Source of the DNA: Pirellulales bacterium
GTDB lineage: Bacteria > Planctomycetota > Planctomycetia > Pirellulales > Thermoguttaceae
Direction: 5' to 3'
NCBI GenBank assembly: GCA_016931995.1
Contig: JAFGDS010000017.1
Span: forward strand, 1 to 64,000
DNA: 64,000 nucleotides
Shown here one piece after another: positions 3,659-22,223 of the stretch. The position numbers and the translations under genes were made by a program. The notes below the pieces were generated by a model. That model saw only the letters and a program-made list of their open reading frames with translations. It did not search any database and had not been told where the DNA came from. How positions within the stretch are numbered: position 1 is the stretch's first letter; each line of letters opens with the position of its first letter.

Positions 3659-5347
<1,689 letters not shown>

Positions 5348-5527: not shown

Positions 5528-8500
5528 ATGAACGTCCGTCTGGGATCGTTTTGGTTGGCCAGCCTGCTGGGCTGCCTGGTTGTGATGGGAGGGCAAAGGG
5601 CCCTGGCGCAGGAGCCCACGCCGCCGCCGGCCGCGCCGGACGACGCGCCCGAGGCCCGGGTGATCCGCGAGCAGTCGATCTACATCCCGTACGAAAAGCT
5701 CCGCAACGTCTTCGAGAAGGAAGGCCGCGGCGTCTTCATCCCCTACGAAAAATTCCAGGAGCTGTGGAAGGCCGCCCGCGACAAGACCCAGCCCACGCCC
5801 GACGGCAAGCCGCCCGTCGGCGCGCTGGTGAGCGAGTCGGAGAACGAAGCCACCGTGGCCAAGGACGTGGTCCGTGTCGCCGCGAAGCTCAAGATCGAAG
5901 TGCTCGCCGAGGGTTGGCACGAGATCCCGCTGCGGCTGGCCGATGCGGCGATCACCCGAGCGACGATCGGCGACGTGCCCGCGCGGATCGTGGCTGATCC
6001 CGCGGGCTACAAGCTCCTTGTGGAGAAGAAAGGCAAGGAGCCGGAGTTGATCGAACTGGCGCTCGAATACGCCAAGGCGATCACGAGCACGCCGGGCCGC
6101 AATCAAGTCTCGCTCCAGGCGCCGCAGGCCCCGGTGAGCCGGTGGCGGGTGCGGATTCCCGAGGCGGGCGTGAAGGTGAGCATTCAGCCGATGATCGCCG
6201 CCTCCGAGGTGACCGGCGACGAGGTCAAGCCGGACGAAACCGTGCTCCTGGCGTTCGTCGGCGCCGCCCCGGCCGTCGAAATCGCCTGGACGCCCAAGGC
6301 CGAAGGCGCCACGGGCCTTGCCGCCCTGGCCGGCGTCGAAGCCCATCAACAGGTCCGCATCCACGAGGGCCTGACCCGAACCCAGGCCGTTCTGCAATAC
6401 ACCATCAGCCGCGCGAAGCTAGCCGCGCTCGAAATCGAAGCGCCGGCCGATCAGAAAGTGGTCAACGTCTTCGATCCGAACGTTCGGCAATGGAAGGTCG
6501 AGACGACCGACGCCGTGCAGAAGATCACGGCCGAGCTGTACGAACCCGCCGAGGGCCGGCAGTCGGTCACGGTCGAACTCGAGAAGTTCACCGACGAGAA
6601 AGCCGCCGGCTCGATCGACGTGCCCGTGGTCCGCGCGCTGGGCGTGGGCCGGCAACAGGGCGTGGTGGTGGTCGAGGTGGCCCAGGGTCTGCGGGCGGAA
6701 GCCAAGACGACGACCGGCCTCATGCAGGTTGACGCCGCGGAATTGCCCGAGGCCCTGCGCCAGGGCAAGTGGGACTTCTCCTACCGCTACGCGACCGTGC
6801 CGTACCGGCTGGCGTTGGCCGTCGAGAAGGTCGAGCCGCGGATCCTGGTCGATTCGGCGGTCTTGGTCCGGCTTCGGCCCGAGCGGCTCGAAATGGACGT
6901 GCTGGCGACCTACACGATCGAGCGGGCCGGCGTGTTCCGGCTCGAATGGGACGTGCCCGAAGGGTACGACGTCCGGTTGGTCCGCGGGGTGGGCGAGCTG
7001 CAGGTCGATTCGCACCACCTCACGGGCGAGAAGAAGACGCGGCTCGTGGTCAACTTGGCCCGCAAGGCGCTCGGCAGCGTGATGCTCGACGTGCGTCTGG
7101 CCCGCGACCTTGCCGAACCCGACCTTTTGACGCCAACCGGCAAGGCGGCGAAGATCCCGCTGGTGATCCCGCGGGTCGTGCCCGAGGGGATCGAACGCGA
7201 GACGGGCCGGCTCATCGTCTTCGCGCCGGAGAGTCTGCGGGTGAACCCGGAGGGCGACGCGGGCTTGCGGCCCATCTCGCTGGCCGAGGCCCTGGGCAGC
7301 CTGGCGGGCCGAATCGAGATGCCCGGCGGCATCCCCGCGTTTGGCATCGAATTTTCCGGCGGCGTGAAACCCATCCTGACCTTCGGCTTCGACCGCGAGC
7401 CGGTCAAGCTCTCGCTTTCCGCTGAGCGGCGCCGGCCGCAGGTGAGCGTGAGCCAATTGCTCGTCGCGCGGATCGAGGACGACGCGGTCAAGTATGAAGC
7501 GACGTTCTTTCTCGACGTGCTTTACAGCGGCATCAAGACGCTGCGGATCGACGTGCCGGAGAGCCTGGCGGACAAGCTTCGCACCCAGACGCCGGGCGTC
7601 CGCGACAAGCGGCTGGACCCGTCGCCCGAGGACGTGCCGGCCGGCTACCACGCCTGGCAGTTCAGCGGCACGAGCGAATGGGTCGGTCGTGCCGAAATCA
7701 AACTCGCGTGGGAGGAGAAGATCGACAAGCTGGACCTGGGGAAGTCGGTGCCCCTGGTGGTTCCGCGGCTCGTGCCCGCCATGGCCGACGCCGCGCCGGT
7801 GGATCGCTCCTGGGGTCAGATCGTCGCGGTGAAGGCCGAGACGATCGACGTTCAGCCGGAGGGCGAACCCAAGGCCCTGCGCCCCATCGACCCCCAACAC
7901 GACCTCATGCCGGGCGTCCAAGTGGCCGACGCCGCCGGCGCGTGGGAGTTCCACGGCGATTGGGATCTGACGCTGGAGGCGACCCGCTACGAGCTTGAAG
8001 AAGTGAAGACCACGAGCATCGAGCTGGCCGTCGCCCGAATGGTCGTGACGCGGGCCGACCAGGTGGCCGTGCAGTTTCTCGCCCGCGTGCGCAGCGCCGG
8101 GCAACGACTTGAAGTGACGTTGCCCGCGGATGTCGAGTTCGACAGCGAGCCGCTACGGATCAACGGCCGCGCGGTCACGCTCGAACGGGGCGCGGCCGGC
8201 ACGGTCTTCATCCCGCTGGTGGGCGCGGAGCCGGACAAGCCCTTTGTGATCGACCTCCGCTACGCCGCGCCCGGCAACGGCGGCACGCTCGAACTACCCG
8301 TCTTTCCCGAAAATCCCGCCGTGCTCAAGGTCCAGCTCTGCGCGTATCTGCCCGAGGAGTTGGCCCTGGTCGGCGTGACCGGTCCGTGGACCAACGAGAT
8401 TGCATGGCGGCCCAGCGGTGATGCCTGTTTGACCTGGGAACCCACGTTCCCCCTGAGCGACGCCGAGTTGTTCGCGGCCGTGTGCCAAGGGGTGAACGTG

Positions 8501-8965
8501 TCGCCGGAGGAGGCCATCAAGGGCTTCCAAACCGACGGGCGGCGCTACGTCTTCGCGACGCTCCGCCCCACGGGACCGCTTCATCTCTGGACGATCAACG
8601 AAAAACTGCTCACCGGCATCGTGTTGGTCGTCGTGGTGCTGGGCGGGATTCTGCTGGTGCCTTGCGGATGGGGATCGCGGGTGCTGGCCGTCGGGGCGCT
8701 CGTCGCCGCGATTGTGTTGTGCGGCACGTTCTGGCCGATTCTGGCCATGCAGGTGCTCGATGGGTATCTTGTGCTGGCACTCGTGCTGGTCCTGGTGGTG
8801 TGGATCATCGCCTGCGCCCGCCGCGTGAGCTGCCGCCGTCCCGCGGCGTCTTGGGCGTCCGGCGGCCCGTCTCCAAGCGAGGCAAACGGCGCGCCGCCGC
8901 CCTCGCCGGAAGCCCCCGCGGCTCCGCCCGCCGACGACCAGGAAGGAGGCCCCAGCCATGCGTGA
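5528..8965 (+). CDS. Large exported membrane-anchored protein with IPYEK motifs, function unknown
   Basis: Not assignable to a characterised family. The 1145-residue protein starts with a signal peptide (MNVRLGSFWLASLLGCLVVM, cleavage near ALAQ-EP). Two tandem strands follow, SIYIPYEKLRNVF and GVFIPYEKFQELWK (about residues 50-80). The rest is a long beta-rich extracytoplasmic region with a GVGRQQGVVVVEV segment near residue 375. Three membrane segments lie at about residues 1024-1097, followed by a Pro/Ala-rich tail. The ATG at 5528 has GAGGAG 6 bases upstream, whereas the upstream ATG at 5441 precedes no signal peptide. It overlaps the start of the next gene by 8 bases, and both share the same motifs, so they probably work together at the envelope. 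Confidence 0.8.
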   Translation: MNVRLGSFWLASLLGCLVVMGGQRALAQEPTPPPAAPDDAPEARVIREQSIYIPYEKLRNVFEKEGRGVFIPYEKFQELWKAARDKTQPTPDGKPPVGALVSESENEATVAKDVVRVAAKLKIEVLAEGWHEIPLRLADAAITRATIGDVPARIVADPAGYKLLVEKKGKEPELIELALEYAKAITSTPGRNQVSLQAPQAPVSRWRVRIPEAGVKVSIQPMIAASEVTGDEVKPDETVLLAFVGAAPAVEIAWTPKAEGATGLAALAGVEAHQQVRIHEGLTRTQAVLQYTISRAKLAALEIEAPADQKVVNVFDPNVRQWKVETTDAVQKITAELYEPAEGRQSVTVELEKFTDEKAAGSIDVPVVRALGVGRQQGVVVVEVAQGLRAEAKTTTGLMQVDAAELPEALRQGKWDFSYRYATVPYRLALAVEKVEPRILVDSAVLVRLRPERLEMDVLATYTIERAGVFRLEWDVPEGYDVRLVRGVGELQVDSHHLTGEKKTRLVVNLARKALGSVMLDVRLARDLAEPDLLTPTGKAAKIPLVIPRVVPEGIERETGRLIVFAPESLRVNPEGDAGLRPISLAEALGSLAGRIEMPGGIPAFGIEFSGGVKPILTFGFDREPVKLSLSAERRRPQVSVSQLLVARIEDDAVKYEATFFLDVLYSGIKTLRIDVPESLADKLRTQTPGVRDKRLDPSPEDVPAGYHAWQFSGTSEWVGRAEIKLAWEEKIDKLDLGKSVPLVVPRLVPAMADAAPVDRSWGQIVAVKAETIDVQPEGEPKALRPIDPQHDLMPGVQVADAAGAWEFHGDWDLTLEATRYELEEVKTTSIELAVARMVVTRADQVAVQFLARVRSAGQRLEVTLPADVEFDSEPLRINGRAVTLERGAAGTVFIPLVGAEPDKPFVIDLRYAAPGNGGTLELPVFPENPAVLKVQLCAYLPEELALVGVTGPWTNEIAWRPSGDACLTWEPTFPLSDAELFAAVCQGVNVSPEEAIKGFQTDGRRYVFATLRPTGPLHLWTINEKLLTGIVLVVVVLGGILLVPCGWGSRVLAVGALVAAIVLCGTFWPILAMQVLDGYLVLALVLVLVVWIIACARRVSCRRPAASWASGGPSPSEANGAPPPSPEAPAAPPADDQEGGPSHA

Positions 8966-11900
8966 CGCGCACCTCCAAACCCCTCGCCCCCAACCCCTCT
9001 CCCGCAAGCGGGAGAGGGGAGCCGTGGGTGCCATGCCCACGCTTGCCGTGGGCATGTGCCCGCGAGTTGTCCCCTTCAGGGCCCCGCGCCTCCTTCTCCT
9101 TCTCGCTCTCGCCTGGATCGTTCTCCCCGCCGTGGCCTTCGCCGCCGAGCTGGCGGAACAGCGCGTGCGGGAGATCTACGTCCCGGCCGAGGACCTGCAC
9201 GTCCTCTTGGAAGGTCAGCCTCAGCGGGTGCTGCTGCCGCGCGACGAATACGAAGACCTCCTGGCCAAGGCCCAGAAAGCGGCCGAAACCAAGCCGCCGC
9301 GGACATGCCTGTGGACCGGCGCCGAGTACGCAATCACGCTCGAGGAAGAGCGGGCTCGCCTGGAGGGCGTCCTCCAGATCGAATCGCTCGACGATGCGCT
9401 GGTGGCCTTGCCGCTGGATCTGGGCGGAGTCGGCTTGCGCCGCGCGACGCTTGACGAGAAGTCCGCGGCGATCGGTCGGGGGCCCGACGGCAAGTGGATC
9501 CTCTTCGTCCAGGGCAAGGGTCCGCACAAGCTTGTTCTCGAGATGGTCGCGCCGCTCGAGACGACCGCGGCGACGCAGACGCTGCGTTTCCGCTTGCCGC
9601 CATCGCCGGCCGCGTCGATCCGCATGACCGTGCCCGGCGACGTCGAAGTGAAAAGCGGCCTCGACGTGGCCCGGCGCGAGGTGGACGCGACGGCCGGGAT
9701 GACGCGATTCGAGTTGCTCCCGCGCGCCGGCGACGTGACGCTGGTGATGACGCTCAACAGCCACCTCGCCCGCACGAGCCGCGTGGTCGTGGCCCGCGGC
9801 GTCCAGATTGGCGAGGTGACCCAAGCCTACGAGGCCCTGCACGCCACCACGTCGCTTGCCGTGCTGCACCAGGCGATCGACCAGTGCCGGTTCCTCGTGC
9901 CCGAAGGGTTCGAGGTTACCGAAGTCCACTCGCCGGCCATGGCCAGTTGGGCCGTGACCGACGCGCCCGAGGGCCGGGTGCTCGCGGTGAAGCTCCGCGA
10001 GGCGACCACCGGCACGGTCGTGCTCCAGATGATGGCCGTCCGCGCGCCGGCGCGATTGGACAATTGGACGATGCCGCGGCTCGCGCCGCTGGACGTCGTG
10101 GGCGAGACGTCCGAATTGGGCCTGCTGGTCGAGGATCGGCTCGAGACGCATTCGATACGCGCCGAGGGGCCCATCGCCATCGACGTGGACGTGCTCGACG
10201 CGGCGCTGCCCGAGTCGGTCCGCCGGGGCGGCGAGGGCCGCGTGCCGCTGCGCACGGTGGCCGCCTTCTATGTGCCCAGCGGCGACTACACGCTGACCGC
10301 GGCCTTCCGCAAGCCGCCCGCCGCCGTGAGCGCCACCACCGCGCTGCTGCTGACGCTGGGCGATGCGGGCCAAGCCGTCCGCGGCGCGCTCGTCCTGCGG
10401 CCCGAGCACGAGAAGCTCTTTTCGTTTAATCTGGCCGTGCCCGCCGGTTGGCGGGTGGATCGGGCCATGGGCGCCGATGGACAAGCATTGACCATCGAGC
10501 GCTTCACGGGCGAGGACGGCGCGAGCCGCGTGCTCGTGCGCCTGCCCCGGGGTATTCCGGCCGGCGGCCAGGGCGCCGTGCGTTTCGACGCCTCGCGGAC
10601 CCCACCCGGCTGGCTCGATGAGTGGAAATCGCAAAAGATCGAGTTCCCCGCCTTCTCGATCGCCGGCGACGTCCGCCAGTCGGGCGCGATCGCCGTGGCC
10701 GTGACCGACGATTTGGACGTGCGGCCCGAAACACTTGTGGGGCTCGTTCCCTTGGACGACGCCCAGAAGGCGCCGTTGGGCCTGGGCGGCACGGCCGCGC
10801 CGCTAGCCTACCGATTCGACGACCTGCCCTTCGAGGCGGCCCTGACCGTCCGCCGCAATGATCCCCGGATCACCGCGCGGACGTTTTCGTTCCTCCGCGT
10901 CGAGCCGGGGGCGCTGGTGGGCCACTGCGAAGTGGTCTACCGCGTCGAGCAGGCGCGAACCCGCTCGCTCGAGCTGATTCTCCCGGTCGACACGCCGCCG
11001 GATGTGGCGCTGCGCGGCGCGGACGGCGTCGAGGTCGAGTATTCCGCCCGCGAGGTCGAAGGCCAACGCCACTGGACCGTGAAGCTGGCCGACGCCCGCC
11101 GGGGCGACGTGCGCCTGCTGGTCGATTTCCTCAAACGGCTGGACGACGAGACCTCGCAGGAGTTGGACGCGCCGGTGGTCCGCGCCGGCGGCGTGGCGTA
11201 TCAGTCCGGTCTGGTCGCGATCGAAGGCAGCGCGGAGCTCGACGTGCAAGTGACCGCCAAGGCCCGCCGCGTGGACGTCGGCGAGCTGGTCGACGCGCGG
11301 TATCAGCCGGGCCGGCGGCTGTTGGGCGTGTACGGATTCGTGGGCGAGCCGGAGACCGTGAAGCTCGCGGTGTTTCACCGCCCGGCGTATCCGCTCGATC
11401 CGGCCGTGGTCCAGCACGCCCGGTTGCTCACGCGGCTTTCGGCCCAGGGCACGGCGCAGACCGAGGCGCGATTCGATCTGGCCACGAAGGCCCTGTTCCT
11501 CGAGCTGAAGCTGCCCCCAGAGGCGTCGCTCTGGTCGGTGTGGGTGGACGACCGGCCGGTCAAACCGCAGCGCGAGGGCCAAAGCGTGTTGGTGAGCCTG
11601 CCGGCCGCGCCGGACAAGCCGATCCGCCGGTTGCAGTTCTTCTACGAAACGCCCGCCGCGGCCGTGGGCATCCTCGGCCGCGTGGGCGTGGACGCGCCGA
11701 CGTTGCGGCTGGCGGCCGACGCGAAGTCGGAGGCGGTCGACGTGCCGCTGGTGGATCTCCAATGGGACCTGTACCTGCCCGGCCGGTACGACGTCGTCCG
11801 CAGCCGCGGCAGCGTGGTCACCAACGACATCGAGCGTCCGACGCCGGCCTTATTGAACGTGGCCGGGGCGCTGTGGTATCTGGCCGGCGGCGTTCGGACC

Positions 11901-14900
11901 CCGTTGGCTTGGCTTCCGCACGGCGAAGCGAAGACGAAGAGTGCGATGCCCATGTACCTTCGCGACGACGCCAAAATCGAAGCCCTCGCCGAGACCGCGC
12001 CGGCCGAGGACGCCCGGAGGGAGGACTATGAGCCAAATATGACCCTCATCGTTCCGCAGCACGAGCACGAGACAGGCGTCGAAGAGCCAGAAGCCGCGGA
12101 GCCGGCCCTTCCGGCGCCCGCGTTCAGGCCCGCCGATCCGTTCGCTGCCGAGGCAACTGTCCCACCGCCCACCGAGGCCCCGCTCGCCCCGCCACAGCCC
12201 GCCCAGCAACAGCCTGCCCAGGTCGCCGGCGGACAGCCGGTGGTCGGCAAGCCGGTCTGGGAAACGAGCAAGGCCAGCGCCTGGGCACGAGGTCATCGCA
12301 GTCTCAAGATCCAATTGGCGGACGAAAACGCCCCGACCGCCGCCACCGGCGAAGAGGCCACGCCAGTCGTCTTCCGCAGCTTCGGCGTGGACCCGACGCT
12401 CGACGTGACGCTGGCCGATCGCGGCCGGCTCGACACGTTTGGCTGGGGCGCGGCCCTGGTGGTCGCCGTGGTCGGCGCGGCCCTCACGCGCCGGCGGATC
12501 GGCGCGCGGGCGCGGTACGTGCTGGGCGTACTCGTTCTGGGCACGGTCGTGCCGGTCATCCCCGGCTTCCTGTGGCTGGCCGAGCCCTGCAACATGGCCG
12601 TCTACGCGGCGGCGCTCTTGGTGCCCTATTACCTGCTGGCCGGCCTCGCGCGGTGGCTGGTCTGCTGGGCGGCCGGTTGGTGTCCGATCCGCCGTTGGAT
12701 CGCCACGACGGCCACTGGCGTTGCGTTGCTGAGCGTGGCGCTCGCAGCGACGGCTGCGACCGCCGACGAGCCCGCGCCGCCGGCCGGGCCAATCACCGTG
12801 CAGATCGTTCCGCCGCCGGCGCCGGTGGCCGTGCCGGCCGACGCGATCCTGATTCCCTACAATCCCGAGTCGGAAACCGGCATCGAGGACGCCCGGCGAC
12901 GGCTGATTCCCTATGACAAATACGTCGAGCTATGGAATCGGGCGTATCCGGACAAGAAGCTCACCGCCACGGCCCCGCCCGCGCCCTTTGGCCTGGCCGG
13001 CGCGGCGTACACCGCGCGGCTGGAGGGCACGGACGATCTCTTGGTCGAAGGCCAAATCGAGTTGGACGTGTACGTAACGGAGCCGGTGAGCGTGCCGCTG
13101 GGGCTTGCTGGCGGCGTGTTGGCCCGGGCGGAAGAAGACGGCAAGCCGGCCCGACTGAGCGTCGTCGCCCCCGAGCAGCAACCGGTCCAACAGCCCGCGC
13201 AGCAGAAGGCCGGACCGCCGACCGATGCCGCGCGTCCGCTCGTGCTTTGGCACGTCTCGGGCAAGGGTCGGCACGCGCTGGCCGTGGCCGTGCGGATGCG
13301 GCTTGCACGGCAAGGCGGCTGGCGCGTGGCCGAGGGCGCACTGCCCGCCGCGCCCGCCACCGCGCTGGCCATCACCGTGCCCGCGGCGCAAACCGAGGTC
13401 CGTCTGGGCCAGCTTGCCGATCGGGCGAGCTACGACACGCGCGAGGCGGATCAGAAGATCGAGACCGCTCTGGGCGCGGAAGGCGCCTTGCGGATCCAAT
13501 GGCGGCCCAAGGTGGCCGAGGGCGAAGTGGACCGGAGCCTGACCGTGGCCAGCGACGCCGCGCTGGACGTCCGCGAGGACGGCCTCGCCCTGGCCTGGCA
13601 GTTGGCCCTCAGCTTCCCCCGCGGCCACCGCGAGCAATTCACGCTGGCCGTGCCCGAGGGCTACCTCGTCAAACGCGTCGAGGGCGAAAACGTCCGCGGC
13701 TGGGAGGTCTCGCCGGGCGAGAAGTCGCGGAAGCTGGCCGTGTCGCTGTTGAAGCCGGCCGCCGACGCCGAGCGATTCACCGTGCGGCTGTGGCGCGCGG
13801 GCGTGCCGGCCGAGTTCGACGCGCCCGTGGTCGAGGCGCCGGAAGCCGCGTTGCACAAGGGCCGGCTCGTGATCTCGCGCAGTCCGCTTCTGGACGTGCA
13901 AACCCGCGGCGCTCGGGGCGCGGAGCGGACCGATTTGCCCGCCCAACAAGGGCCTGCCGGCGAGGAAGCGGCCAGCCCGCTGGGCACGCGGCCCTATCAG
14001 GCGTACGCCTTCGCCACGACGCCGTTTGCCGTCCAACTGAGCGCCGCGCCGCTTGCGCCCAAGACCACGGCCGCGTGGCAGACGATCTTGCGGATCGCCC
14101 AGGAGGAGCGGACGGTCGAGGCCCGGCTGCGGCTCGGCGTCGAGGACCGGCCGATCCACCGCGCGGAGATCCGCCTGCCGGAAGGATTCACGCTCGAAAG
14201 CGTCCAGGCCCCCGGTGCGTTTCATTGGGCGGTAACGGACGAGGGCGCCGAAGCGCAGTCGCGGCTCTTGACGGTCTACTTTGGCCAAGGACACGTGGGC
14301 AACGTCGATATCGTCCTCGAGGGCAAGCTACCCAAGGCCCCGCTCGACAAGCCGCTGACGCTGCCGCGATGGGAAGCGTTGGGCGTCGCCCGGCAACAGG
14401 GTGACGTCGCCGTCCAGGCCGATCCGTCCATCCGCGTTCAGGCCGGAGACCTCAAGAACTGTCAGAGCGTGCTCGTTGGCCAGGTCCACGCGTGGCTCGA
14501 CGAGCCGCAGCGCCGGCTGGTTCAGGCCGCGCTGCACCACGTTGGGACGGACTACGCCGCGACGCTCTCGTTCGCCAGGCGAACACCGGACGTGACTTGC
14601 TCGACCATTTCCAACGTTCGCGTCACGGAACGGGCGGTCGAGGAGACGATTCTTTTGGACTTTACGATCCGCCAGGCCGGCGTCCGCAAGATCGCGTTCC
14701 TGCTACCGGCGTGGATGGCCGACTCCCGCGTGAGCGCGCCACTCATGCGGCAGAAGCCGTCGATCGAGCCGGCCGCCGCGGGCGACAATGCCCCGGTGCG
14801 GGTCACCGTTGAATTGCAGGACGAAGTGATGGACGAGCTGCGGGTGCTTGTGGAGAATGACCGTCTGCTGGCTGCCGGAGCGCGGCAGGCGCCTATCCCG

Positions 14901-17039
14901 ATCGTCGAGACGGGTCGCACCACGCGGCGCTACGTCACGCTCGAAAGCGCCGGCCGCGACGAGGTCGTGGTCGATCCGGCGAAGCTCGCGGGCATGGAAC
15001 CGCTGGGCCGGAAGCTCCGCGAGTGGCAAGCCCTGCGCGCGGCGCTCGGCGGCGACATCACCCAGGCGTACTTGGTCGCGCCCGACGCGGCCGAAGCGCG
15101 GCTGGAATTCCAAACCCGCACCCGCGAAGCCGTCGAAACCGCCGGCGCGCGGATCGGTCTGGCCGTGACGGGCCTGATGCTCGACGCCCAGGGCGCGTAC
15201 CGGGGGCAGGTCGAGTATCGCGTCGATAACCAGACCGCGCAGTTTCTTCAGATCGAATTGCCGCACGGAGCCCGCCTCTGGGCGGCCGTCGTGGCGGGCG
15301 AACCGGTCAAGCCGATCAAGGACCCCGACGCGGCCGACGACCGGCACGTGTGCATCCCGCTGGTGAAGACCGCCACGGGCGACGTGGCCTACCCGGTCGT
15401 CCTGGTCTACGGCGGCAAGCTGCCGGCCTTGGCCCGATGGGGCTCGACCGTGGATTTCCCCGTGGTCCGCACGGTGAAGATCGAGCCCGAGCAGAGCCAG
15501 GTGAGGCTCTACCTGCCCAAGACGCACCGCTGGTTCGATTTCGGCGGGACGATGAGCCGCGTGGACGAAGAGGCCGAGCTTGCGGCCCAGCAGGTGGCGT
15601 TCAAGACGAAGGAAGCCGGGCGGCTGATGGACGCGATGAAGAGCGACAATCCCTACGCCCAGGCCCGCGCGGCGTACAACTTCCAGCAACTCGCGCTCGA
15701 GCAAGGCGGCCAGACGGAGGAGGAGATGCTTTCGTATTCCGGAAACAAGTCGCTCCAGAAGCAGCTTGCCCAGCAGAGCGAGGTCTTCTCGCAAGCGCAA
15801 CGGCAAGCCCAACAGATCGACGCCGCGCCCGCGCGGGCCGCCCAAACCGACAATCGGGGCGAGCTGAACGACTTCTACGCCAATCAGCGCAACGCCCGCG
15901 CGGCCAACGTCGTCGACAGCGTGGGCGCGAACTGGCGATTGTCGGAAGAGTCGTCGAAACCCGCGCCGGACGACTCCAAGCCGGCAACGTACCAGATGAA
16001 CCAGACGTGGCTGGACGCGAACCGTCTGGCCAACCCGGCGGCCGCGCCGGGCAAGGAGAAGAAGGCCGGAGAAGTCCGCGGCGATCGCGCCGCGGGCAGG
16101 GTCATCGTCAAGGGGAGCAAGCCCTCGCCGAAGATGCCCGCCGTGAGCGGGTGGCTCGAAAGCGGCGTAACGTCGTCGACAATGGTTCCCCAGCAGCAAG
16201 GCCAGCGGTTCATCCAACCGATGGACCAACCGCAGGCCGCTCCGGGGGGCGTGCCCTCCAGTTCCGCCGAACCGGCCGACAAGGTGGCCCGGTACAAGAG
16301 TCAGTTGCGGCAAGGCCAAACGGGACAGAAGGCGTATGGCCTGTATGACCGTGGCAGAGGCGTAACCCACGACGATGCCAACCCCCTTGCGGAATCCCAA
16401 CGCCGCGCGACCGTCGGCATGTCCGCCCCCAGCGCGTTCGGCGGGGACCCCAATGATCCGAGCAGGTCCATCCCCCGCCGGCCACAACTCGCGGGGACGC
16501 AGACCGGAAGGCTGCAATTCGGTGTCGGCGTGCAAAGCGACATGGGTCTGTATGGCCCGGTCGTGGTCGATGGCCAACCCGTCCCTCCGGGCATGGGCGG
16601 GATGGGCGGCATGGGGGGCGGCATGGGCATGGGCGGCATGGCGCCGGGCGGCGCGCAGGGACCCGCCGCGCCGGCGGGGCTGGCCAGCCTGATCGTCCAA
16701 CTGCCCGAGCCCAACGCGGCCTTCTACGACGCCTATCTGTTCACCACGCCGCGCGGTCGGATCGATCTGACCGCCCGCGCCGTGGACGACCAATGGGCCG
16801 GCGAACTTGCCCGGCTCGTGCTGGTCGTCGCCGCGCTCGCGCTGGCCGTGATGGCGTTCCGCCGGATCGGCCGGCCGCTGGGTGGGTGGCTCGCCTCGCC
16901 GGCGGGCTCGACTGCCCTCCTGGTCCTGGGCGTCCTCGGCCTAGCAAGCTGCATCTTTCCCGTCGCCGGCGCGGCGCTCCTCCTGGCCGGCGTGGCGCTG
17001 AAGATCCGCCGAAGGCGCATCGCGTCCGCCGCGGCGTGA
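8958..17039 (+). CDS. Giant exported multidomain protein, function unknown
   Basis: A 2693-residue protein translationally coupled to the preceding gene. GGAAGGAGG at 8941-8949 is well placed for the ATG at 8958. A hydrophobic signal segment (FRAPRLLLLLALAWIVLPAV) begins near residue 41, after a stretch encoded by palindromic repeats. It looks like an internal duplication. The N-half starts with EIYVPAEDLHVLLEG and RVLLPRDEYEDLL (about 72-100). Membrane segments follow at about 1161-1272. The C-half restarts with AILIPYNPESE and RLIPYDKYVELWN (about 1295-1325), the motif seen twice in the upstream gene. Segments such as GVARQQGDVAV (about 1810) also recur. Near the C-terminus come a Gln/Ala-rich stretch, a Gly/Met-rich run (about 2544-2565) and two membrane segments. 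No enzyme motif was recognised. Confidence 0.8.
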   Translation: MRDAHLQTPRPQPLSRKRERGAVGAMPTLAVGMCPRVVPFRAPRLLLLLALAWIVLPAVAFAAELAEQRVREIYVPAEDLHVLLEGQPQRVLLPRDEYEDLLAKAQKAAETKPPRTCLWTGAEYAITLEEERARLEGVLQIESLDDALVALPLDLGGVGLRRATLDEKSAAIGRGPDGKWILFVQGKGPHKLVLEMVAPLETTAATQTLRFRLPPSPAASIRMTVPGDVEVKSGLDVARREVDATAGMTRFELLPRAGDVTLVMTLNSHLARTSRVVVARGVQIGEVTQAYEALHATTSLAVLHQAIDQCRFLVPEGFEVTEVHSPAMASWAVTDAPEGRVLAVKLREATTGTVVLQMMAVRAPARLDNWTMPRLAPLDVVGETSELGLLVEDRLETHSIRAEGPIAIDVDVLDAALPESVRRGGEGRVPLRTVAAFYVPSGDYTLTAAFRKPPAAVSATTALLLTLGDAGQAVRGALVLRPEHEKLFSFNLAVPAGWRVDRAMGADGQALTIERFTGEDGASRVLVRLPRGIPAGGQGAVRFDASRTPPGWLDEWKSQKIEFPAFSIAGDVRQSGAIAVAVTDDLDVRPETLVGLVPLDDAQKAPLGLGGTAAPLAYRFDDLPFEAALTVRRNDPRITARTFSFLRVEPGALVGHCEVVYRVEQARTRSLELILPVDTPPDVALRGADGVEVEYSAREVEGQRHWTVKLADARRGDVRLLVDFLKRLDDETSQELDAPVVRAGGVAYQSGLVAIEGSAELDVQVTAKARRVDVGELVDARYQPGRRLLGVYGFVGEPETVKLAVFHRPAYPLDPAVVQHARLLTRLSAQGTAQTEARFDLATKALFLELKLPPEASLWSVWVDDRPVKPQREGQSVLVSLPAAPDKPIRRLQFFYETPAAAVGILGRVGVDAPTLRLAADAKSEAVDVPLVDLQWDLYLPGRYDVVRSRGSVVTNDIERPTPALLNVAGALWYLAGGVRTPLAWLPHGEAKTKSAMPMYLRDDAKIEALAETAPAEDARREDYEPNMTLIVPQHEHETGVEEPEAAEPALPAPAFRPADPFAAEATVPPPTEAPLAPPQPAQQQPAQVAGGQPVVGKPVWETSKASAWARGHRSLKIQLADENAPTAATGEEATPVVFRSFGVDPTLDVTLADRGRLDTFGWGAALVVAVVGAALTRRRIGARARYVLGVLVLGTVVPVIPGFLWLAEPCNMAVYAAALLVPYYLLAGLARWLVCWAAGWCPIRRWIATTATGVALLSVALAATAATADEPAPPAGPITVQIVPPPAPVAVPADAILIPYNPESETGIEDARRRLIPYDKYVELWNRAYPDKKLTATAPPAPFGLAGAAYTARLEGTDDLLVEGQIELDVYVTEPVSVPLGLAGGVLARAEEDGKPARLSVVAPEQQPVQQPAQQKAGPPTDAARPLVLWHVSGKGRHALAVAVRMRLARQGGWRVAEGALPAAPATALAITVPAAQTEVRLGQLADRASYDTREADQKIETALGAEGALRIQWRPKVAEGEVDRSLTVASDAALDVREDGLALAWQLALSFPRGHREQFTLAVPEGYLVKRVEGENVRGWEVSPGEKSRKLAVSLLKPAADAERFTVRLWRAGVPAEFDAPVVEAPEAALHKGRLVISRSPLLDVQTRGARGAERTDLPAQQGPAGEEAASPLGTRPYQAYAFATTPFAVQLSAAPLAPKTTAAWQTILRIAQEERTVEARLRLGVEDRPIHRAEIRLPEGFTLESVQAPGAFHWAVTDEGAEAQSRLLTVYFGQGHVGNVDIVLEGKLPKAPLDKPLTLPRWEALGVARQQGDVAVQADPSIRVQAGDLKNCQSVLVGQVHAWLDEPQRRLVQAALHHVGTDYAATLSFARRTPDVTCSTISNVRVTERAVEETILLDFTIRQAGVRKIAFLLPAWMADSRVSAPLMRQKPSIEPAAAGDNAPVRVTVELQDEVMDELRVLVENDRLLAAGARQAPIPIVETGRTTRRYVTLESAGRDEVVVDPAKLAGMEPLGRKLREWQALRAALGGDITQAYLVAPDAAEARLEFQTRTREAVETAGARIGLAVTGLMLDAQGAYRGQVEYRVDNQTAQFLQIELPHGARLWAAVVAGEPVKPIKDPDAADDRHVCIPLVKTATGDVAYPVVLVYGGKLPALARWGSTVDFPVVRTVKIEPEQSQVRLYLPKTHRWFDFGGTMSRVDEEAELAAQQVAFKTKEAGRLMDAMKSDNPYAQARAAYNFQQLALEQGGQTEEEMLSYSGNKSLQKQLAQQSEVFSQAQRQAQQIDAAPARAAQTDNRGELNDFYANQRNARAANVVDSVGANWRLSEESSKPAPDDSKPATYQMNQTWLDANRLANPAAAPGKEKKAGEVRGDRAAGRVIVKGSKPSPKMPAVSGWLESGVTSSTMVPQQQGQRFIQPMDQPQAAPGGVPSSSAEPADKVARYKSQLRQGQTGQKAYGLYDRGRGVTHDDANPLAESQRRATVGMSAPSAFGGDPNDPSRSIPRRPQLAGTQTGRLQFGVGVQSDMGLYGPVVVDGQPVPPGMGGMGGMGGGMGMGGMAPGGAQGPAAPAGLASLIVQLPEPNAAFYDAYLFTTPRGRIDLTARAVDDQWAGELARLVLVVAALALAVMAFRRIGRPLGGWLASPAGSTALLVLGVLGLASCIFPVAGAALLLAGVALKIRRRRIASAAA
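8994..9019. repeat. Perfect palindrome, family B copy 1, inside a coding region
   Basis: CCCCTCTCCCGC, loop AA, then GCGGGAGAGGGG form a perfect 12-bp stem. It lies about 36 bases inside the giant gene, between its start codon and the hydrophobic signal segment. A near-identical copy with the same flanks (CCCTCGCC before, AG after) is at 22408-22433. Sequences of this CCCTCTCCCGC type are widespread REP-like elements in GC-rich bacteria. Confidence 0.85.
9033..9055. repeat. Palindrome ATGCCCACG / CGTGGGCAT inside a coding region
   Basis: A 9-bp perfect stem with a CTTGC loop, 14 bases after the family B palindrome, still upstream of the signal-peptide hydrophobic core of the giant gene. It encodes MPTLAVGM in frame. 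Its ATG is an alternative start for the giant protein. Confidence 0.7.
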
Positions 17040-17097: not shown

Positions 17098-17211
17098 AAC
17101 CACGAAAGACACGAAACACACGAAAGACGCATAATGGTACGTCTTCCGGCGGGAACGATTCGATAGGTCGTTGCCGCCTCGCCTTTCGTCTATTTCATGT
17201 TTTTCGTGGTT
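17098..17211. repeat. MITE-like element with about 32-base imperfect terminal inverted repeats
   Basis: The left end AACCACGAAAGACACGAAAC... (17098-17129) matches the reverse complement of the right end (17180-17211, ...TTTTTCGTGGTT) over about 32 bases with roughly six mismatches. About 50 unrelated bases lie between. The left end is internally repetitive (ACACGAAA units). It sits between the giant gene and the nucleotidyltransferase. No transposase is encoded, so it would be non-autonomous if mobile. Confidence 0.6.
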
Positions 17212-17328
17212 CTCACTTATCTCTCAGACGCCAACGGCCCCCCGGCCCATTGGCTCCCCCGCGACCGCGTGTTAAGATGGCTCGTGGGGTGGGTCGGCCA
17301 CTTCGCCAGGTTGTTTTCGGAGTCCTCC

Positions 17329-18150
17329 ATGACGGCGCCTTTGACGGACAAAGCGGTGATTCTCGCCCGCGGACTGGGCAAGCGGATGCGCAAACAAGAC
17401 GACTCCGGCGCGCTCGACGCGCGGCAAGCGGCCGTCGCCGAGATGGGCGTCAAGGCCCTCATGCCCATCGACCGGCCCTTTCTGGACTACGTCCTTTCCG
17501 CCCTGGCCGACGCGGGCTATCGCCGCGTTTGCCTGGTGATCGGGCCGGATCACGACCTCATCCGCGACTACTACACCCGCGAGGTCGAGCTGGACCGCGT
17601 CAGCGTCGATTTCGCCGTGCAGCGGGAACCCCGCGGCACCGCCGACGCCGTGGCCGCGGCCGAGCCCTTCGCCGACGGCGACGACTTCGCCGTGTTCAAC
17701 TCGGACAACTACTATCCGATCGAAGCCCTGCGCCGCCTGCGCGAGCAGGGCGGCGCGGGCGTCGGCCTGTTCGATTGGCAGACCATGCTCGCCGAGAGCA
17801 ACGTCTCCGAAGCGAGGCTCCGCTCGTTCGCCGTCGCGCAACTGGAAGGCGGCTGCCTCGTCGACGTGCTCGAGAAGCCGGACGAGGCCACGTGGAACGC
17901 CCTGCCGCGGCCCATCTGGATGAGCATGAACTGCTGGCAGTTCCGCCCCACTATTTTCGAGTCCTGCCGGTTGATCGAGCCGTCGCCCCGCGGCGAGTTC
18001 GAGGTGACCGACGCCGTGCGCCACTCGATCAACGTCCTGGGCGAACGGTTCCGCGCCGTGACCGTGCGGGCGCCCGTGCTCGACCTGACCAGCCGGCAAG
18101 ACGTGGCCAGCATTGCCCAGCGCCTCGCGGGCACCGAGGTGCGGCTTTGA
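17329..18150 (+). CDS. Sugar-phosphate nucleotidyltransferase (NTP_transferase family)
   Basis: A 273-residue Rossmann-like nucleotidyltransferase expected to make an NDP-sugar from a sugar-1-phosphate and an NTP. The N-terminal signature is AVILARGLGKRMRK, the substrate loop MGVKALMPIDRPFLDY, and the metal-binding Asp lies in FAVFNSDNYYPIEAL. The C-terminal part is short, with no hexapeptide acetyltransferase domain. The upstream open frame (from 17197) lies in a repeat, so the ATG at 17329 before MTAPLTDKAVIL is used. The next gene, a GHMP sugar kinase, overlaps its stop, so the pair looks like a kinase plus nucleotidyltransferase salvage or activation module. The sugar and the nucleotide are not identifiable. 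Confidence 0.85.
   Translation: MTAPLTDKAVILARGLGKRMRKQDDSGALDARQAAVAEMGVKALMPIDRPFLDYVLSALADAGYRRVCLVIGPDHDLIRDYYTREVELDRVSVDFAVQREPRGTADAVAAAEPFADGDDFAVFNSDNYYPIEALRRLREQGGAGVGLFDWQTMLAESNVSEARLRSFAVAQLEGGCLVDVLEKPDEATWNALPRPIWMSMNCWQFRPTIFESCRLIEPSPRGEFEVTDAVRHSINVLGERFRAVTVRAPVLDLTSRQDVASIAQRLAGTEVRL
18136..18141 (+). promoter_or_regulatory. Ribosome binding site deciding a TTG start
   Basis: GAGGTG, 5 bases before the TTG at 18147, lies inside the last codons of the nucleotidyltransferase. It supports reinitiation at the overlapping TTGA. Confidence 0.6.
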
Positions 18151-19526
18151 ACTCGTTGGACTATCGCGGTTCGCTGGAAGACGAAGCCGCGCTGGCCGCG
18201 GCGCTTAGCCAGGCGGGCGACGAGCCCGACGCGGCCTCGGCCCGCGCCGCCCTGCTGGCCCAAGCCGCCGCCCTCGTGCCCGAAGCGTCCGCCCGCCGCG
18301 CCTTTTGCGTGCCCGGGCGGATCGAGGTATTCGGCAAACACACCGACTACGCCGGCGGGCGGACGATGGTCGTCGCCGCCCAGCGCGGGCTGGCCCTGGT
18401 CGCCGCGCCCCGCGGCGATCGCGCCGTGCGGATCAGCTCCGTCACGATGGGCCAAACCGTCGCGTTCGACCTGGAGCCGGACCTCGTGCCCCAGCCGGGC
18501 CACTGGTCGAACTACCCCATGACCGTCGCCCGGCGTATCGCCCGAAACTTCCCCGGCCCGCTGGCCGGCGCCGATGTCGCCTTCGCCAGCGACCTGCCGC
18601 TGGCCGCCGGCATGAGCAGCTCCAGCGCCCTGGTCGTCGGCGTGTTCCTCGTCCTGGCCGAGATCAACCGCCTGGAAGAACGGCCCGAGTTTAAGGCCGC
18701 CATCGCCGACCCGACCGATCTGGCCGGCTACCTGGGCACGATCGAAAACGGGCAATCGTTCGGGCCCCTGGCGGGCGATCGGGGCGTCGGCACGTTCGGC
18801 GGGAGCGAGGACCACACGGCCATTCTCCACGGCCAGCCCGGCCGCATCAGCCAGTACTCGTACTGCCCCGTGCGATTCGAGCGGACCGTGGACCTGCCGC
18901 GGACGCACGTGTTCGCGGTGGCCGCAAGCGGCGTCATCGCCGAAAAAACCGGCGCGGCCAAGGACCTGTACAACGCCGTCTCCGCCCGGGCCGCGGCCTT
19001 GCTCGACGTGTGGCGCGGCGCGACCGGCCAGACCGCCCGCCACCTGGCCGAGATCCTGGCCACCGGACCCGGCGCGGCCGAGCGGCTCGCCCGGCACGTG
19101 GCGGCCTCGCGCCGCGACGATTTCGACGCCGACTCGCTCGCCCGGCGACTCGCGCATTTTCAGGCGGAAAGCCACGAGATCATCCCCGCGGCGGGCGACG
19201 CCCTGGTCCGGGGTGACCTGGCCGCCTTCGGCCGCGAGGCGGCTCGCTCGCAAGACCTCGCCGAGCGGCTCCTGGGCAACCAGGTGCCCGAAACCTCGGC
19301 CCTAGCCGCCCTGGCCCTGCAGTGCGGGGCCGACGCCGCCAGCAGCTTCGGCGCCGGCTTCGGCGGCAGCGTCTGGGCCTTGGTCGCGCGCACCCGGGCC
19401 GACTCGTTCCTGGACCAATGGCGCGAGGCTTACGCCTCCGCCTTTCCCCACCGCGCCCCGATGGCCGCCTTCTTCACCACCTCCGCTGGCCCCGGCGCGT
19501 TGCGCGTCGTCCATCGCCTCTTCTGA
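18147..19526 (+). CDS. GHMP-family sugar kinase (galactokinase-like)
   Basis: Phosphorylates a sugar at C1 by homology. The 459-residue protein has the galactokinase-type signature PGRIEVFGKHTDYAGGRT (about residue 55), the GHMP ATP-binding loop DLPLAAGMSSSSALV (about 150) and a C-terminal Gly-rich motif SSFGAGFGGSVWALV. HTDYAGG in place of the classical EHTDYNGG and other deviations leave the actual sugar open. The start is inferred to be TTG at 18147, which overlaps the previous stop (TTGA) and has GAGGTG 5 bases upstream; no ATG fits the N-terminus. This argues for translational coupling with the nucleotidyltransferase. Confidence 0.85.
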   Translation: MNSLDYRGSLEDEAALAAALSQAGDEPDAASARAALLAQAAALVPEASARRAFCVPGRIEVFGKHTDYAGGRTMVVAAQRGLALVAAPRGDRAVRISSVTMGQTVAFDLEPDLVPQPGHWSNYPMTVARRIARNFPGPLAGADVAFASDLPLAAGMSSSSALVVGVFLVLAEINRLEERPEFKAAIADPTDLAGYLGTIENGQSFGPLAGDRGVGTFGGSEDHTAILHGQPGRISQYSYCPVRFERTVDLPRTHVFAVAASGVIAEKTGAAKDLYNAVSARAAALLDVWRGATGQTARHLAEILATGPGAAERLARHVAASRRDDFDADSLARRLAHFQAESHEIIPAAGDALVRGDLAAFGREAARSQDLAERLLGNQVPETSALAALALQCGADAASSFGAGFGGSVWALVARTRADSFLDQWREAYASAFPHRAPMAAFFTTSAGPGALRVVHRLF

Positions 19527-20336: not shown

Positions 20337-20534
20337 AAAGTGGCAGTAAAACGCCGAGGATGTCTTCAAACATATAGGGTTAAGGGGACCCGGCGTCAAG
20401 GGGGGCCGGGAGTTGCGGCTGGAAGAGGGTGGCTCTAGAATGGGGCTCGGCCCGCTGCATATGGCGACATGGGGACACGCGGGGCGCGGTCGTGCGCCGT
20501 CGCCGAGGTGGCGCGGCCACGAGGGTTCGCGGAT

Positions 20535-22223
20535 ATGGCACTATTGCGTGCGGTTGTCGGTCTTGAGCCGGGACAGGTCTTTGCGCTGGAGGGCGAGTCA
20601 ACGATCCTCGGGCGTAGCCCCGACTGCGACATCGTTCTGGACGTCGGCGCGGTCAGCCGCCAACACGCGCGGGTGTCGTATGTGGACGGCGGGTACTACA
20701 TCGAGGATCTCAACAGCCGTAACGGCACGTATCTGAACGATCGGCTGGTGAGCGGCCGCCAGCGGCTGGCCGACAACGATCGGGTGCGGATTTGCGACCT
20801 GGTGTTCGCGTTTCGCGCGGGGCCGGGCGAGGCGGACCCGATCGAGGGCGGCACGGTCACTCTCGAGCAGCGCGAGGCCATGCTGGTCGACGATGGGCGA
20901 TCGACCACCGGGTCCACGGTCATGTCGAAGCTGGACGCCTCGGCCGGTCAGACCGGCGCGAGGCTTCGGCTTCAGCCCGAGGCCAAGCTCAAGGCTCTCG
21001 TCGAGATCGGGCAGAGCCTTGGCCGAGCGCTTGCCCCGGCCGAGGTTCTTCCGCGGATTTTGGACGGGCTGTTCTCGATCTTCCCGCAGGCGGATCGGGG
21101 TTTCATCGTGCTCAGGGCGCCGGACTCCGGCCGGCTGGTACCCATGGCGCTGAAGCATCGCCGGGATTCCGAGGCCGACACCATACGGCTGAGCCGCACG
21201 ATCGTCAACGAGGTGATGCATCGGCGCGAGGCGATTCTCTCGGCGGACGCGACGACCGACGCGCGGTTTGACATGGCGGAGAGCATCGTCGACTTTCACA
21301 TACGCTCGATGATGTGCGCGCCGCTGGTCGGCACGAACGGCGAGGCGCTCGGGGTGATCCAGATCGACACGCTCGATCAGCACAGCCGGTTCAGCAAGGA
21401 GGATCTGGACGTGCTGGTGAGCGTGGCTGGTCAGGCCGCCTTCGCGGTGGAGAACGCCCAGCTCCACGAGGCGGCGCTGCGCGAGCGGGCGCTCGCGCAC
21501 GAACTGGCGATCGCCCACGAAGTGCAGCAGGGTTTCTTGCCCGACGGGCATCCCGCCATCCCCGGCTACGGCTTTTTCGATTTCTACGAGCCGGCCAACC
21601 AGCTCGGCGGCGACTATTACGATTACGTGTGGCTGGGCGACGGACGCTGGGCCGTGGTGTTGGCCGACGTGTCGGGCAAGGGCATCTCCGCCGCGCTGTT
21701 GATGGCGCGGCTGTCGGCCGAGGTCCGCTACAATCTGGCCAGCCAGGCGTCGCTGCCCGAGGCCGTGCGGGAAATCAACCGCGTGCTGTGCCAGAATCGC
21801 TGGGAAGATCGGTTCATCACGATGATCCTGGGCGTGCTCGATCCACGGTCGCATCGGGTGTCGTTCGTCAACGCGGGGCACATGCCGCCGCTTCTGCACG
21901 GGCAGCGCGCCACGTGCGAGGCGGTGACCCACGCCCAGACGGGCCTGCCGCTGGGCGTCGATCGGGACGTGACCTACGTGGAGACGACCGTGCCCCTGCG
22001 GCCGGGCGACTCCCTTACGCTGTATTCCGACGGCATCACGGAAGCGATGAACGACGCGGGCGACCTCTACGGCCGGTCGCGCTTGTGGGCCCGGGTGGAC
22101 GGAGTGGACGAGCCGGACGTGGCCGTGCTGGGGCGCACGATCCTCGACGACGTCAAACGGTTCGTCGGCAACCGGCCGCAAAGCGACGACATGTGCATGA
22201 CGTGCTTCGGACGGCTTGCGTGA
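20535..22223 (+). CDS. FHA-GAF-SpoIIE (PP2C-type) serine phosphatase
   Basis: A 562-residue cytoplasmic signalling protein. An N-terminal FHA phosphothreonine-binding domain (GRSPDCDIVL, SRQHARV, LNSRNGTYLND; about residues 10-90) is followed by a GAF sensor domain (about 160-320). A C-terminal PP2C/SpoIIE phosphatase domain (about 340-560) carries metal-binding Asp residues in GGDYYDYV, LADVSGKGISA and LYSDGITEA. Such proteins dephosphorylate anti-sigma antagonists or other Ser/Thr phosphoproteins, with the FHA domain targeting partners. The ATG at 20535 begins the FHA domain directly; the open frame upstream of it has no recognisable domain. The downstream gene is convergent, so this is probably monocistronic. 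Confidence 0.92.
   Translation: MALLRAVVGLEPGQVFALEGESTILGRSPDCDIVLDVGAVSRQHARVSYVDGGYYIEDLNSRNGTYLNDRLVSGRQRLADNDRVRICDLVFAFRAGPGEADPIEGGTVTLEQREAMLVDDGRSTTGSTVMSKLDASAGQTGARLRLQPEAKLKALVEIGQSLGRALAPAEVLPRILDGLFSIFPQADRGFIVLRAPDSGRLVPMALKHRRDSEADTIRLSRTIVNEVMHRREAILSADATTDARFDMAESIVDFHIRSMMCAPLVGTNGEALGVIQIDTLDQHSRFSKEDLDVLVSVAGQAAFAVENAQLHEAALRERALAHELAIAHEVQQGFLPDGHPAIPGYGFFDFYEPANQLGGDYYDYVWLGDGRWAVVLADVSGKGISAALLMARLSAEVRYNLASQASLPEAVREINRVLCQNRWEDRFITMILGVLDPRSHRVSFVNAGHMPPLLHGQRATCEAVTHAQTGLPLGVDRDVTYVETTVPLRPGDSLTLYSDGITEAMNDAGDLYGRSRLWARVDGVDEPDVAVLGRTILDDVKRFVGNRPQSDDMCMTCFGRLA

What the first reader, a model, noticed from the sequence alone, without database searches (positions are those of the whole stretch)
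5528..17039. Two-gene operon of giant exported proteins built from repeated IPYEK modules
The 1145- and 2693-residue proteins share a paired strand motif: IPYEKLRNVF plus IPYEKFQELW in the first, VPAEDLHVLL plus LPRDEYEDLL at the start of the second, and IPYNPESE plus IPYDKYVELW in its middle after a membrane block. A second shared segment (GVGRQQGVVVVEV, GVAYQSGLVAIEG, LHKGRLVISRS, GVARQQGDVAVQA) recurs in all three parts. The simplest reading is that the giant gene arose by fusion of two copies of an ancestor like the first. I know of no function for it; the operon could be an undescribed planctomycete envelope system.
Basis: partly seen in the sequence, partly recalled or inferred. Interest (0 to 1): 0.65.

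Follow-up and report, generated by a model that had tools for sequence, protein, structure and literature searches.

The report
Bacterial giant protein, likely cut apart
A two-gene operon in what looks like a planctomycete encodes three related, membrane-anchored rod-like proteins built from repeated domains of a known fold; two of them are strung together in one giant chain that carries a signal-peptide-like stretch in its middle and may be cut there, and no described protein family tested here fits.

Summary
The 1145-aa P1 and the 2693-aa P2 contain three homologous modules of about 860 aligned residues (profile E 4e-64, 9e-62, 5e-67; reversed and shuffled controls E 0.08 or worse). Each module is itself a string of ~185-residue repeats. 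Two AlphaFold models, of P1 and of a P2 part, resemble the N-domain of M1 aminopeptidases and an oligosaccharyltransferase subunit (OST1 by recall); no sequence family matches. The gene pair is conserved (70 of 71 testable loci), occurs in Planctomycetota and in the phylum of Oligosphaera, and has a second, paralogous operon whose first gene is found in 53 of 57 genomes of the window's order. New here: the fused P2 keeps a signal-peptide-like segment with an AxA cleavage motif just before module B (strict motif in 31 of 47 P2 proteins; eight membrane-helix regions 1-17%). P2 may therefore be a precursor that signal peptidase cuts into two P1-like proteins. The paralogous S2 proteins do not show this excess. 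The function, a non-catalytic envelope scaffold, is inferred. Cleavage was not tested.

The parts
5528..8965 (+). P1, 1145 aa: signal peptide, paired IPYxx motif, N-domain, tandem repeats, three C-terminal membrane helices
5678..5773 (+). P1 residues 51-82, paired motif IYIPYEKL..VFIPYEKFQELW; conserved in the 68-row alignment, low model confidence
5810..6298 (+). P1 residues 95-257, domain with the M1-aminopeptidase N-domain fold
6329..8560 (+). P1 residues 268-1011, tandem ~185-residue beta-domain repeats (about 268-436, 438-634, 638-800, 802-1011; boundaries from strands, approximate)
8585..8836 (+). P1 residues 1020-1103, three membrane helices
8958..17039 (+). P2, 2693 aa as opened; likely real start ATG 9033 or 9054
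9084..9146 (+). P2 N-terminal signal peptide (by hydropathy, about residues 43-63)
9174..11897 (+). P2 module A (residues 73-980) with motif IYVPAEDL..LLPRDEYEDLL
12429..12665 (+). P2 residues 1158-1236, three membrane helices that end module A (by hydropathy)
12699..12764 (+). P2 residues 1248-1269, internal signal-peptide-like segment IATTATGVALLSVALAATAATA; predicted cut after residue 1269
12840..15533 (+). P2 module B (residues 1295-2192) with motif DAILIPY..LIPYDKYVELW
13803..14945 (+). P2 residues 1616-1996, modelled alone: tandem domains of OST1/M1 N-domain type
15534..16676 (+). P2 residues 2193-2573, linker, low-complexity in its later part
   Evidence: by eye
16677..17027 (+). P2 residues 2574-2690, juxtamembrane hairpin (LFTTPRG..) and C-terminal membrane helices

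Best explanation
The operon makes three homologous, membrane-anchored, exported rod proteins: P1, P2-A and P2-B. Each is a signal peptide, a conserved N-terminal motif, about five tandem beta-sandwich domains of M1 N-domain/OST1 type, and membrane helices. P2 is translated as one chain because two genes fused. The internal signal peptide (N-side in the cytoplasm after three membrane helices) re-starts export of module B and is probably cut by signal peptidase, so the mature products would equal those of the unfused three-gene operons. The three rods most likely work together as a non-catalytic scaffold that organises other proteins or polymers at the envelope. Shown: homology, repeats, predicted fold, conserved gene order, unfused forms, signal-peptide character of the internal segment in P2 proteins. 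Inferred: cleavage, assembly of the three products with each other, scaffold role, cellular location, number of domains in the P2 modules.
For: Module homology 34-36 with controls 101. Repeats 39, 108. Models: P1 pLDDT 85.3, pTM 0.51; P2 1616-1996 pLDDT 92.9, pTM 0.79. The first five Foldseek rows for the P2 model are chains of oligosaccharyltransferase complexes that I take as OST1 by recall; VIA Z 12.5, rmsd 3.0 over 164 residues to 8pn9_E, and Z 13.7 over 156 residues for the P1 N-domain to LTA4 hydrolase. Gene pair in 70 of 71 testable loci, 80 examined; paralogous S1-S2 pair in 20 of 20 loci fetched out of 53 genomes with a match. Three-gene forms L210 and L215. Internal segment: strict [AVS]xA[AQED] 31 of 47, against real N-terminal signal peptides 23 of 55 (P1) and 20 of 46 (P2), and eight membrane-helix regions 1-17%; the count stays 30-31 when the search starts at or after the core end; composition-shuffled null 13.3 +/- 2.6, maximum 22 of 2000 draws. 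Net charge before the core positive in 45 of 47. Non-catalytic: the 18 invariant columns of the 68-row P1 alignment contain no H, C, S or K.
Against: No experiment. In the paralogous S2 proteins the strict motif is in only 7 of 18 internal segments, no more than shuffled tails give (mean 7.7), against 3 of 19 and 3 of 18 at control helices. The motif test is my own crude pattern; signal peptides and helices were called by hydropathy or eye, not by SignalP. The positive N-side would also fit an ordinary helix. The N-terminal motif region is modelled at mean pLDDT of about 47-65, so an interface role is a guess. Three invariant polar residues (R295, E352, D788) and near-invariant K and S columns exist, so an activity is not excluded. 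Whole-chain TM-scores to the OST chains are low (0.12-0.17 for P1, 0.25-0.31 for the P2 part): single domains superpose well, whole chains do not. For P1, integrin alpha ranks above them. Neighbouring genes are not conserved and give no functional hint. One locus has P1 without a detectable P2 (L115).
Confidence: 0.43

Rival explanations
1. Same anatomy, but P2 stays one uncut polytopic protein: the internal segment is an ordinary fourth membrane helix, and the two ectodomains act as linked arms.
For: The segment is hydrophobic enough for a helix. The S2 paralogs show no excess of the cleavage motif over shuffled tails. Fusion alone can fix a 1:1 stoichiometry without cleavage.
Against: AxA motif in 31 of 47 internal segments, more often than in the N-terminal signal peptides of the same family, against 1-17% in eight membrane-helix regions; shuffled null never above 22.
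Confidence: 0.37
2. It is part of, or a substrate handler for, a pilin/secretin-type export machine (type II secretion / type IV pili).
For: Two lineages carry domains of such machines in the linker after module A: STN (secretin/TonB N-terminal domain) in L215 gene 2, whole-protein E 9e-9, over the cut-off although no single stretch passes alone; a pilin-like DUF1559 domain in L130 (E 2e-52) and, by eye, L129; 2 of 18 scanned P2 proteins match DUF1559.
Against: No such domain in the window's P2 or in the 19 scanned S2 proteins; no pilus or secretion gene was seen recurring beside the operons (not every neighbour family was identified). DUF1559 is very common in planctomycetes (recalled), so an insertion may be chance.
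Confidence: 0.12
3. Surface adhesins: long beta-sandwich ectodomains that bind other cells or surfaces, integrin-like.
For: Integrin alpha chains are the top Foldseek rows for the P1 model (E 2.7e-9); tandem beta-sandwiches.
Against: TM-score 0.14 only. In the P2 model the OST chains rank above integrin. Near-universal presence of the sister gene in the order (53 of 57) fits a housekeeping envelope role better than a variable adhesin.
Confidence: 0.12
4. A bacterial oligosaccharyltransferase accessory subunit, that is, a true ribophorin I.
For: Fold match of tandem domains to chains of OST complexes; exported domains before membrane helices.
Against: Ribophorin_I HMM finds nothing in the genome at E 1 (its 14 controls hold no match over cut-off, so there is no positive control). 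STT3 is not found in the genome. The OST1 cytosolic domain is missing. No PDB sequence match to the P1 or P2-part profiles.
Confidence: 0.02

Closest known systems
OST1 / ribophorin I (PF04597)
   Same: Tandem beta domains in the exported part, membrane anchor; fold match Z 12.5-13.2 to 8pn9_E (chain identity as OST1 recalled)
   Different: No sequence match; about five domains per module instead of two; three membrane helices instead of one; no cytosolic domain; no STT3 found in the genome
M1 aminopeptidases (LTA4 hydrolase, PepN, ERAP1), N-terminal domain
   Same: Single-domain fold, best Z 13.7, rmsd 3.4 over 156 residues
   Different: No catalytic domain found (no Pfam M1 hit), domain in tandem arrays, membrane anchored
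Integrin alpha ectodomain
   Same: Tandem beta-sandwiches in a membrane-anchored rod
   Different: TM-score 0.14; probably a generic likeness
Bacterial precursor cut at an internal signal peptide (Bradyrhizobium fbcH, cytochrome b/c1; recalled, no paper seen)
   Same: Two exported membrane proteins in one chain with a signal peptide between them
   Different: Unrelated proteins; cleavage known there by recall, only predicted here

Membership tests
Ribophorin I / OST1 | Sequence match to PF04597 | tested here: not met
   0 matches in the own genome at E 1 (no control genome over cut-off); no such Pfam hit for P1 or P2 at E 1 (4)
Ribophorin I / OST1 | Tandem lumenal beta domains of the OST1 fold | tested here: met
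   Two models, of P1 and of P2 1616-1996: 57, 58, 79, 80; the tool names the OST complexes, the chains are OST1 by recall
Ribophorin I / OST1 | C-terminal cytosolic domain that binds ribosomes (PMC11417166, passages) | tested here: not met
   Only about 43 low-confidence residues follow the last helix of P1 (52)
Ribophorin I / OST1 | Works with STT3 | tested here: not met
   PF02516 finds nothing in the own genome at E 0.01; the search rings in 4 of 14 control genomes
M1 aminopeptidase | N-terminal beta domain | tested here: met
   Z 13.7 (58), 12.0 (80)
M1 aminopeptidase | Catalytic domain | tested here: not met
   Pfam at E 1: only Lipocalin_9 at 0.068 for P1, nothing for P2 (4)
Integrin alpha | Whole ectodomain fold | tested here: inconclusive
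   Foldseek E 2.7e-9 but TM-score 0.14 (57)
Precursor with internal signal peptide | Signal peptide with signal peptidase I motif inside the chain, N-side in the cytoplasm | tested here: met
   By a crude pattern and hydropathy in P2 proteins: 31 of 47 strict motif, positive N-side in 45 of 47, three helices before it in the window's P2. Not met in the S2 paralogs (7 of 18, shuffled mean 7.7)
Precursor with internal signal peptide | Cleavage in the cell | not testable with these tools
   Needs protein data
Anti-phage defence system | Match to a PADLOC model | tested here: not met
   0 families for P1 and P2 at E 0.01 (109)

The most novel reading that the evidence does not exclude
A PVC-bacterial envelope system of three paralogous rods, built from OST1-type domains. 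In most lineages seen two of the rods are made as one polyprotein that signal peptidase I cuts at a conserved internal signal peptide; in others they are encoded by separate genes. The three mature rods assemble into a pseudo-threefold complex.
Probability: 0.33. Interest if true: 0.78.

Novelty: categorically new. Interest (0 to 1): 0.63.

Why it matters
A large, conserved membrane-protein family covering about 11.5 kb per operon, with a sister gene in nearly every sampled genome of the order (53 of 57), matches no model in Pfam or NCBIfam over its cut-off (four sister or relative proteins in 110). Planctomycete cell envelopes are unusual and poorly understood, so this is a concrete handle on them. 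If the internal signal peptide is cut, it is a rare bacterial case of a large polyprotein, and the mixed fused/unfused lineages make it testable. The OST1-like tandem fold in bacteria also bears on where that eukaryotic and archaeal domain pairing comes from; PMC11417166 (passages) states that its searches place OST1 in eukaryotes, TACK and Asgard archaea.

Tried and rejected
OST/N-glycosylation role: rejected. Defence system: no PADLOC hit. Operon partners: all-against-all of ORFs in 80 loci (many with short flanks) gave no partner shared widely beyond P1 and P2; the largest real neighbour family was in 7 of 80. Eight lineage-specific neighbours were scanned: DUF1501, a planctomycete cytochrome/DUF1553 protein, GDSL lipase, FG-GAP, GntP, PQQ, EamA and sulfatase. 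The sister operon is preceded by an inositol-monophosphatase family gene in 12 of 20 loci and followed by a GNAT-like gene in 9 of 20; one member of each family was scanned. No clear hint.

Order of fusion and duplication: FastTree pairs P1+S1 (0.913), P2-A+S2-A (0.884), P2-B+S2-B (0.810) on 54 sequences that I chose. The IQ-TREE AU test does not reject independent fusions (p 0.15) or type-wise monophyly (p 0.087); it was run with 5000 replicates, which the program itself calls too few.

Literature: no description of this family was seen in the rows listed by searches (up to 15 rows each, titles and abstract starts; 136, 230, 1 and 27 papers held the terms), nor in passages of PMC10632474, PMC8567305, PMC4973528 and PMC3444138. 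Further passages: PMC7226087, PMC11417166. No paper was read whole, and supplements were not open. One search found no paper; the rows of 118 showed no bacterial polyprotein with an internal signal peptide; the fbcH precedent is recalled. The library is open-access only. In the structure look-ups, families not listed are not excluded.

Full report
What is there. P1 (5528-8965) and P2 (8958-17039) are two large ORFs on the + strand, with a CTP synthase gene divergent on the left (3659-5296, -) and a nucleotidyl transferase and a GHMP kinase on the right. Neither matches a Pfam, NCBIfam or PADLOC model over its cut-off, and P1 has no PDB sequence match at E 1; the best rows were Lipocalin_9 at E 0.068 and CCC_membrane at E 0.43, both below cut-off.

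Three modules. BLASTP and then profile comparisons of 68 P1, 47 P2-A and 47 P2-B sequences show that P1, P2 60-1060 and P2 1282-2345 are homologous over 858-861 columns, E 4e-64 to 5e-67. Two reversed and ten column-shuffled controls gave E 0.08-0.94.

Repeats within modules. Windows of the P1 profile match the P1 profile again at a spacing of about 185 residues (372-554, 555-742, 743-915 and, more weakly, before 372), with E from 1e-19 to 4e-5. The same holds in both P2 modules and across to P1 for most windows; the last window of each P2 module matches its own module only at E 0.001-0.002 but P1 at 3e-8 and 2e-10. The N-domain (90-260) does not match the repeats by sequence (best E 0.044), only by fold.

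Fold. The P1 model has mean pLDDT 85.3 and pTM 0.51. The P2 part 1616-1996 has pLDDT 92.9 and pTM 0.79. For P1, Foldseek lists integrin alpha first (E 2.7e-9) and an OST chain fourth (6s7o_E, 1.0e-8); VIA gives LTA4 hydrolase N-domain Z 13.7 (156 residues, rmsd 3.4) and 8pn9_E Z 13.2 (307 residues, rmsd 8.4 over two domains). For the P2 part, the first five Foldseek rows are chains of human and yeast OST complexes (E 2.5e-7 to 3.7e-6), and VIA puts 8pn9_E first (Z 12.5, 164 residues, rmsd 3.0) with LTA4 hydrolase tied at 12.0. The tool names the complexes; that these chains are OST1/ribophorin I is my recall. Sequence tests do not support membership: no Ribophorin_I match in the genome (without a positive control), no STT3, no PDB match of the P1 profile below E 0.65 and none at E 10 for the P2 part.

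Distribution. Counts include the window's own genome where it was searched. The P1 sequence matches 17 of 40 relatives. The P1 profile matches 97 of 294 genomes of the phylum and 13 of 115 genomes of the phylum of Oligosphaera ethanolica, itself included (NCBI phylum Lentisphaerota). The genome-contig scan found 84 relatives and kept 80 loci, mostly planctomycete MAGs, with single Kiritimatiellia, Lentisphaeria and Verrucomicrobia MAGs and the non-MAG records Oligosphaera ethanolica DSM 24202 and SV_7m_r. Of these 80, 70 have a P2-type ORF within 1 kb after P1, 9 end within 500 bases, and 1 (L115) has none. In L114, L118 and L119 only module A was detected after P1.

A second operon. A profile of three distant single hits (A2) found a paralogous gene S1 in 53 of 57 genomes of the order (49 of 52 good ones): 52 at E below 1e-60, G311 at 9.5e-36; P-type genes score only about 1e-27 to 1e-29 in that search. 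One copy is on contig C92 of the window's own genome. In the phylum A2 matches 52 of 199 genomes, P-type genes among them. In the 20 loci that I fetched, S1 is followed by a giant S2 each time, once cut by a contig end; S2 is homologous to P2 over 1945 columns, E 1e-90. Oligosphaera shows one operon only.

Fusion. L210 (a planctomycete genome) and L215 (a genome of the Oligosphaera phylum) encode P1, P2-A and P2-B as three adjacent genes. All six show the N-terminal motif and, by eye, a signal-peptide-like start; the hydropathy threshold flags three of the six starts. Five of the six have C-terminal hydrophobic segments above threshold, the sixth (L215 third gene) does not. Each of the six matches its corresponding module best (L210: 671, 477, 428 bits; L215: 405, 182, 163 bits). 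The tree favours one ancient fusion before the P/S duplication but the topology test is not significant.

Internal signal peptide. P2 has three membrane helices after module A (1158-1236), the same number as at the end of P1, so the next segment starts in the cytoplasm. That segment (1248-1269) ends in ATA followed by DE. In 47 of 47 aligned P2 proteins a hydrophobic core lies there, and the strict pattern [AVS]xA[AQED] follows in 31. In the N-terminal signal peptides it follows in 23 of 55 (P1) and 20 of 46 (P2); in eight membrane-helix regions it follows in 1-17% (the 17% region overlaps the internal segment, and gives 6 of 46 when trimmed). Shuffling the tails gives 13.3 +/- 2.6, maximum 22 in 2000 draws. 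The count stays at 31 and 30 when the search starts at or two residues after the core end. The side before the core is net positive in 45 of 47, which an ordinary helix in this orientation would also show. Sequence identity in the segment is low (0.22), like the N-terminal signal peptides (0.20) but also near the membrane helices (0.25), against 0.37 in module B. In S2 the motif is in 7 of 18, which equals the shuffled expectation (7.7). I conclude that P2 is probably, not certainly, a precursor of two proteins, and that the S type gives no support for this.

Function. The 18 invariant columns of the P1 alignment contain no H, C, S or K, and the matched domains are non-catalytic ones (recalled), so a structural or binding role is most likely. 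Linker insertions of an STN domain (L215) and of pilin-like DUF1559 domains (L130, L129) hint at contact with export or pilus machines, but they are rare. OST1 has two similar beta-sheet lumenal domains and is reported to bind glycosylated peptides (PMC7226087, passages); by analogy the rods may hold exported substrates or partner enzymes. This last step is inference.

Novelty. The fold is known. The family, its three-module organisation, its sister operon and the internal signal peptide were not seen described in the listed rows of searches. I rate the system as categorically new, with the caveat that its function is unknown and that 'membrane-anchored beta-domain rod' is a familiar architecture.

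Noticed in passing
window 8994-9019: A perfect palindrome (CCCCTCTCCCGC AA GCGGGAGAGGGG) lies in the P1-P2 junction, inside the annotated N-terminus of P2.
   Followed up: partly
L129:4072-12519 and L130:3244-12591: A pilin-like DUF1559 domain is inserted in P2 between module A and its membrane helices (Pfam for L130, by eye for L129).
   Followed up: partly
L215:8172-12581 (-) and L215:4264-8190 (-): The module A gene carries an STN (secretin/TonB N-terminal) domain in its linker; the module B gene has TPR-like matches just below the cut-offs.
   Followed up: partly
L114, L118, L119: Three planctomycete MAG loci have P1 followed by a shorter gene with module A only.
   Followed up: partly
L115:826-4527: P1 without a detectable P2 in 6 kb downstream.
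   Followed up: no
G000:C92 (L170:7940-18025): Second, paralogous S1-S2 operon in the window's own genome.
   Followed up: yes
S-type loci: An inositol monophosphatase family gene precedes S1 in 12 of 20 loci.
   Followed up: no
window 20469-22223: FHA-GAF-SpoIIE phosphatase gene downstream of the operon.
   Followed up: no
window 17197-19526: Nucleotidyl transferase and galactokinase-like GHMP kinase after P2, a possible nucleotide-sugar pair.
   Followed up: no
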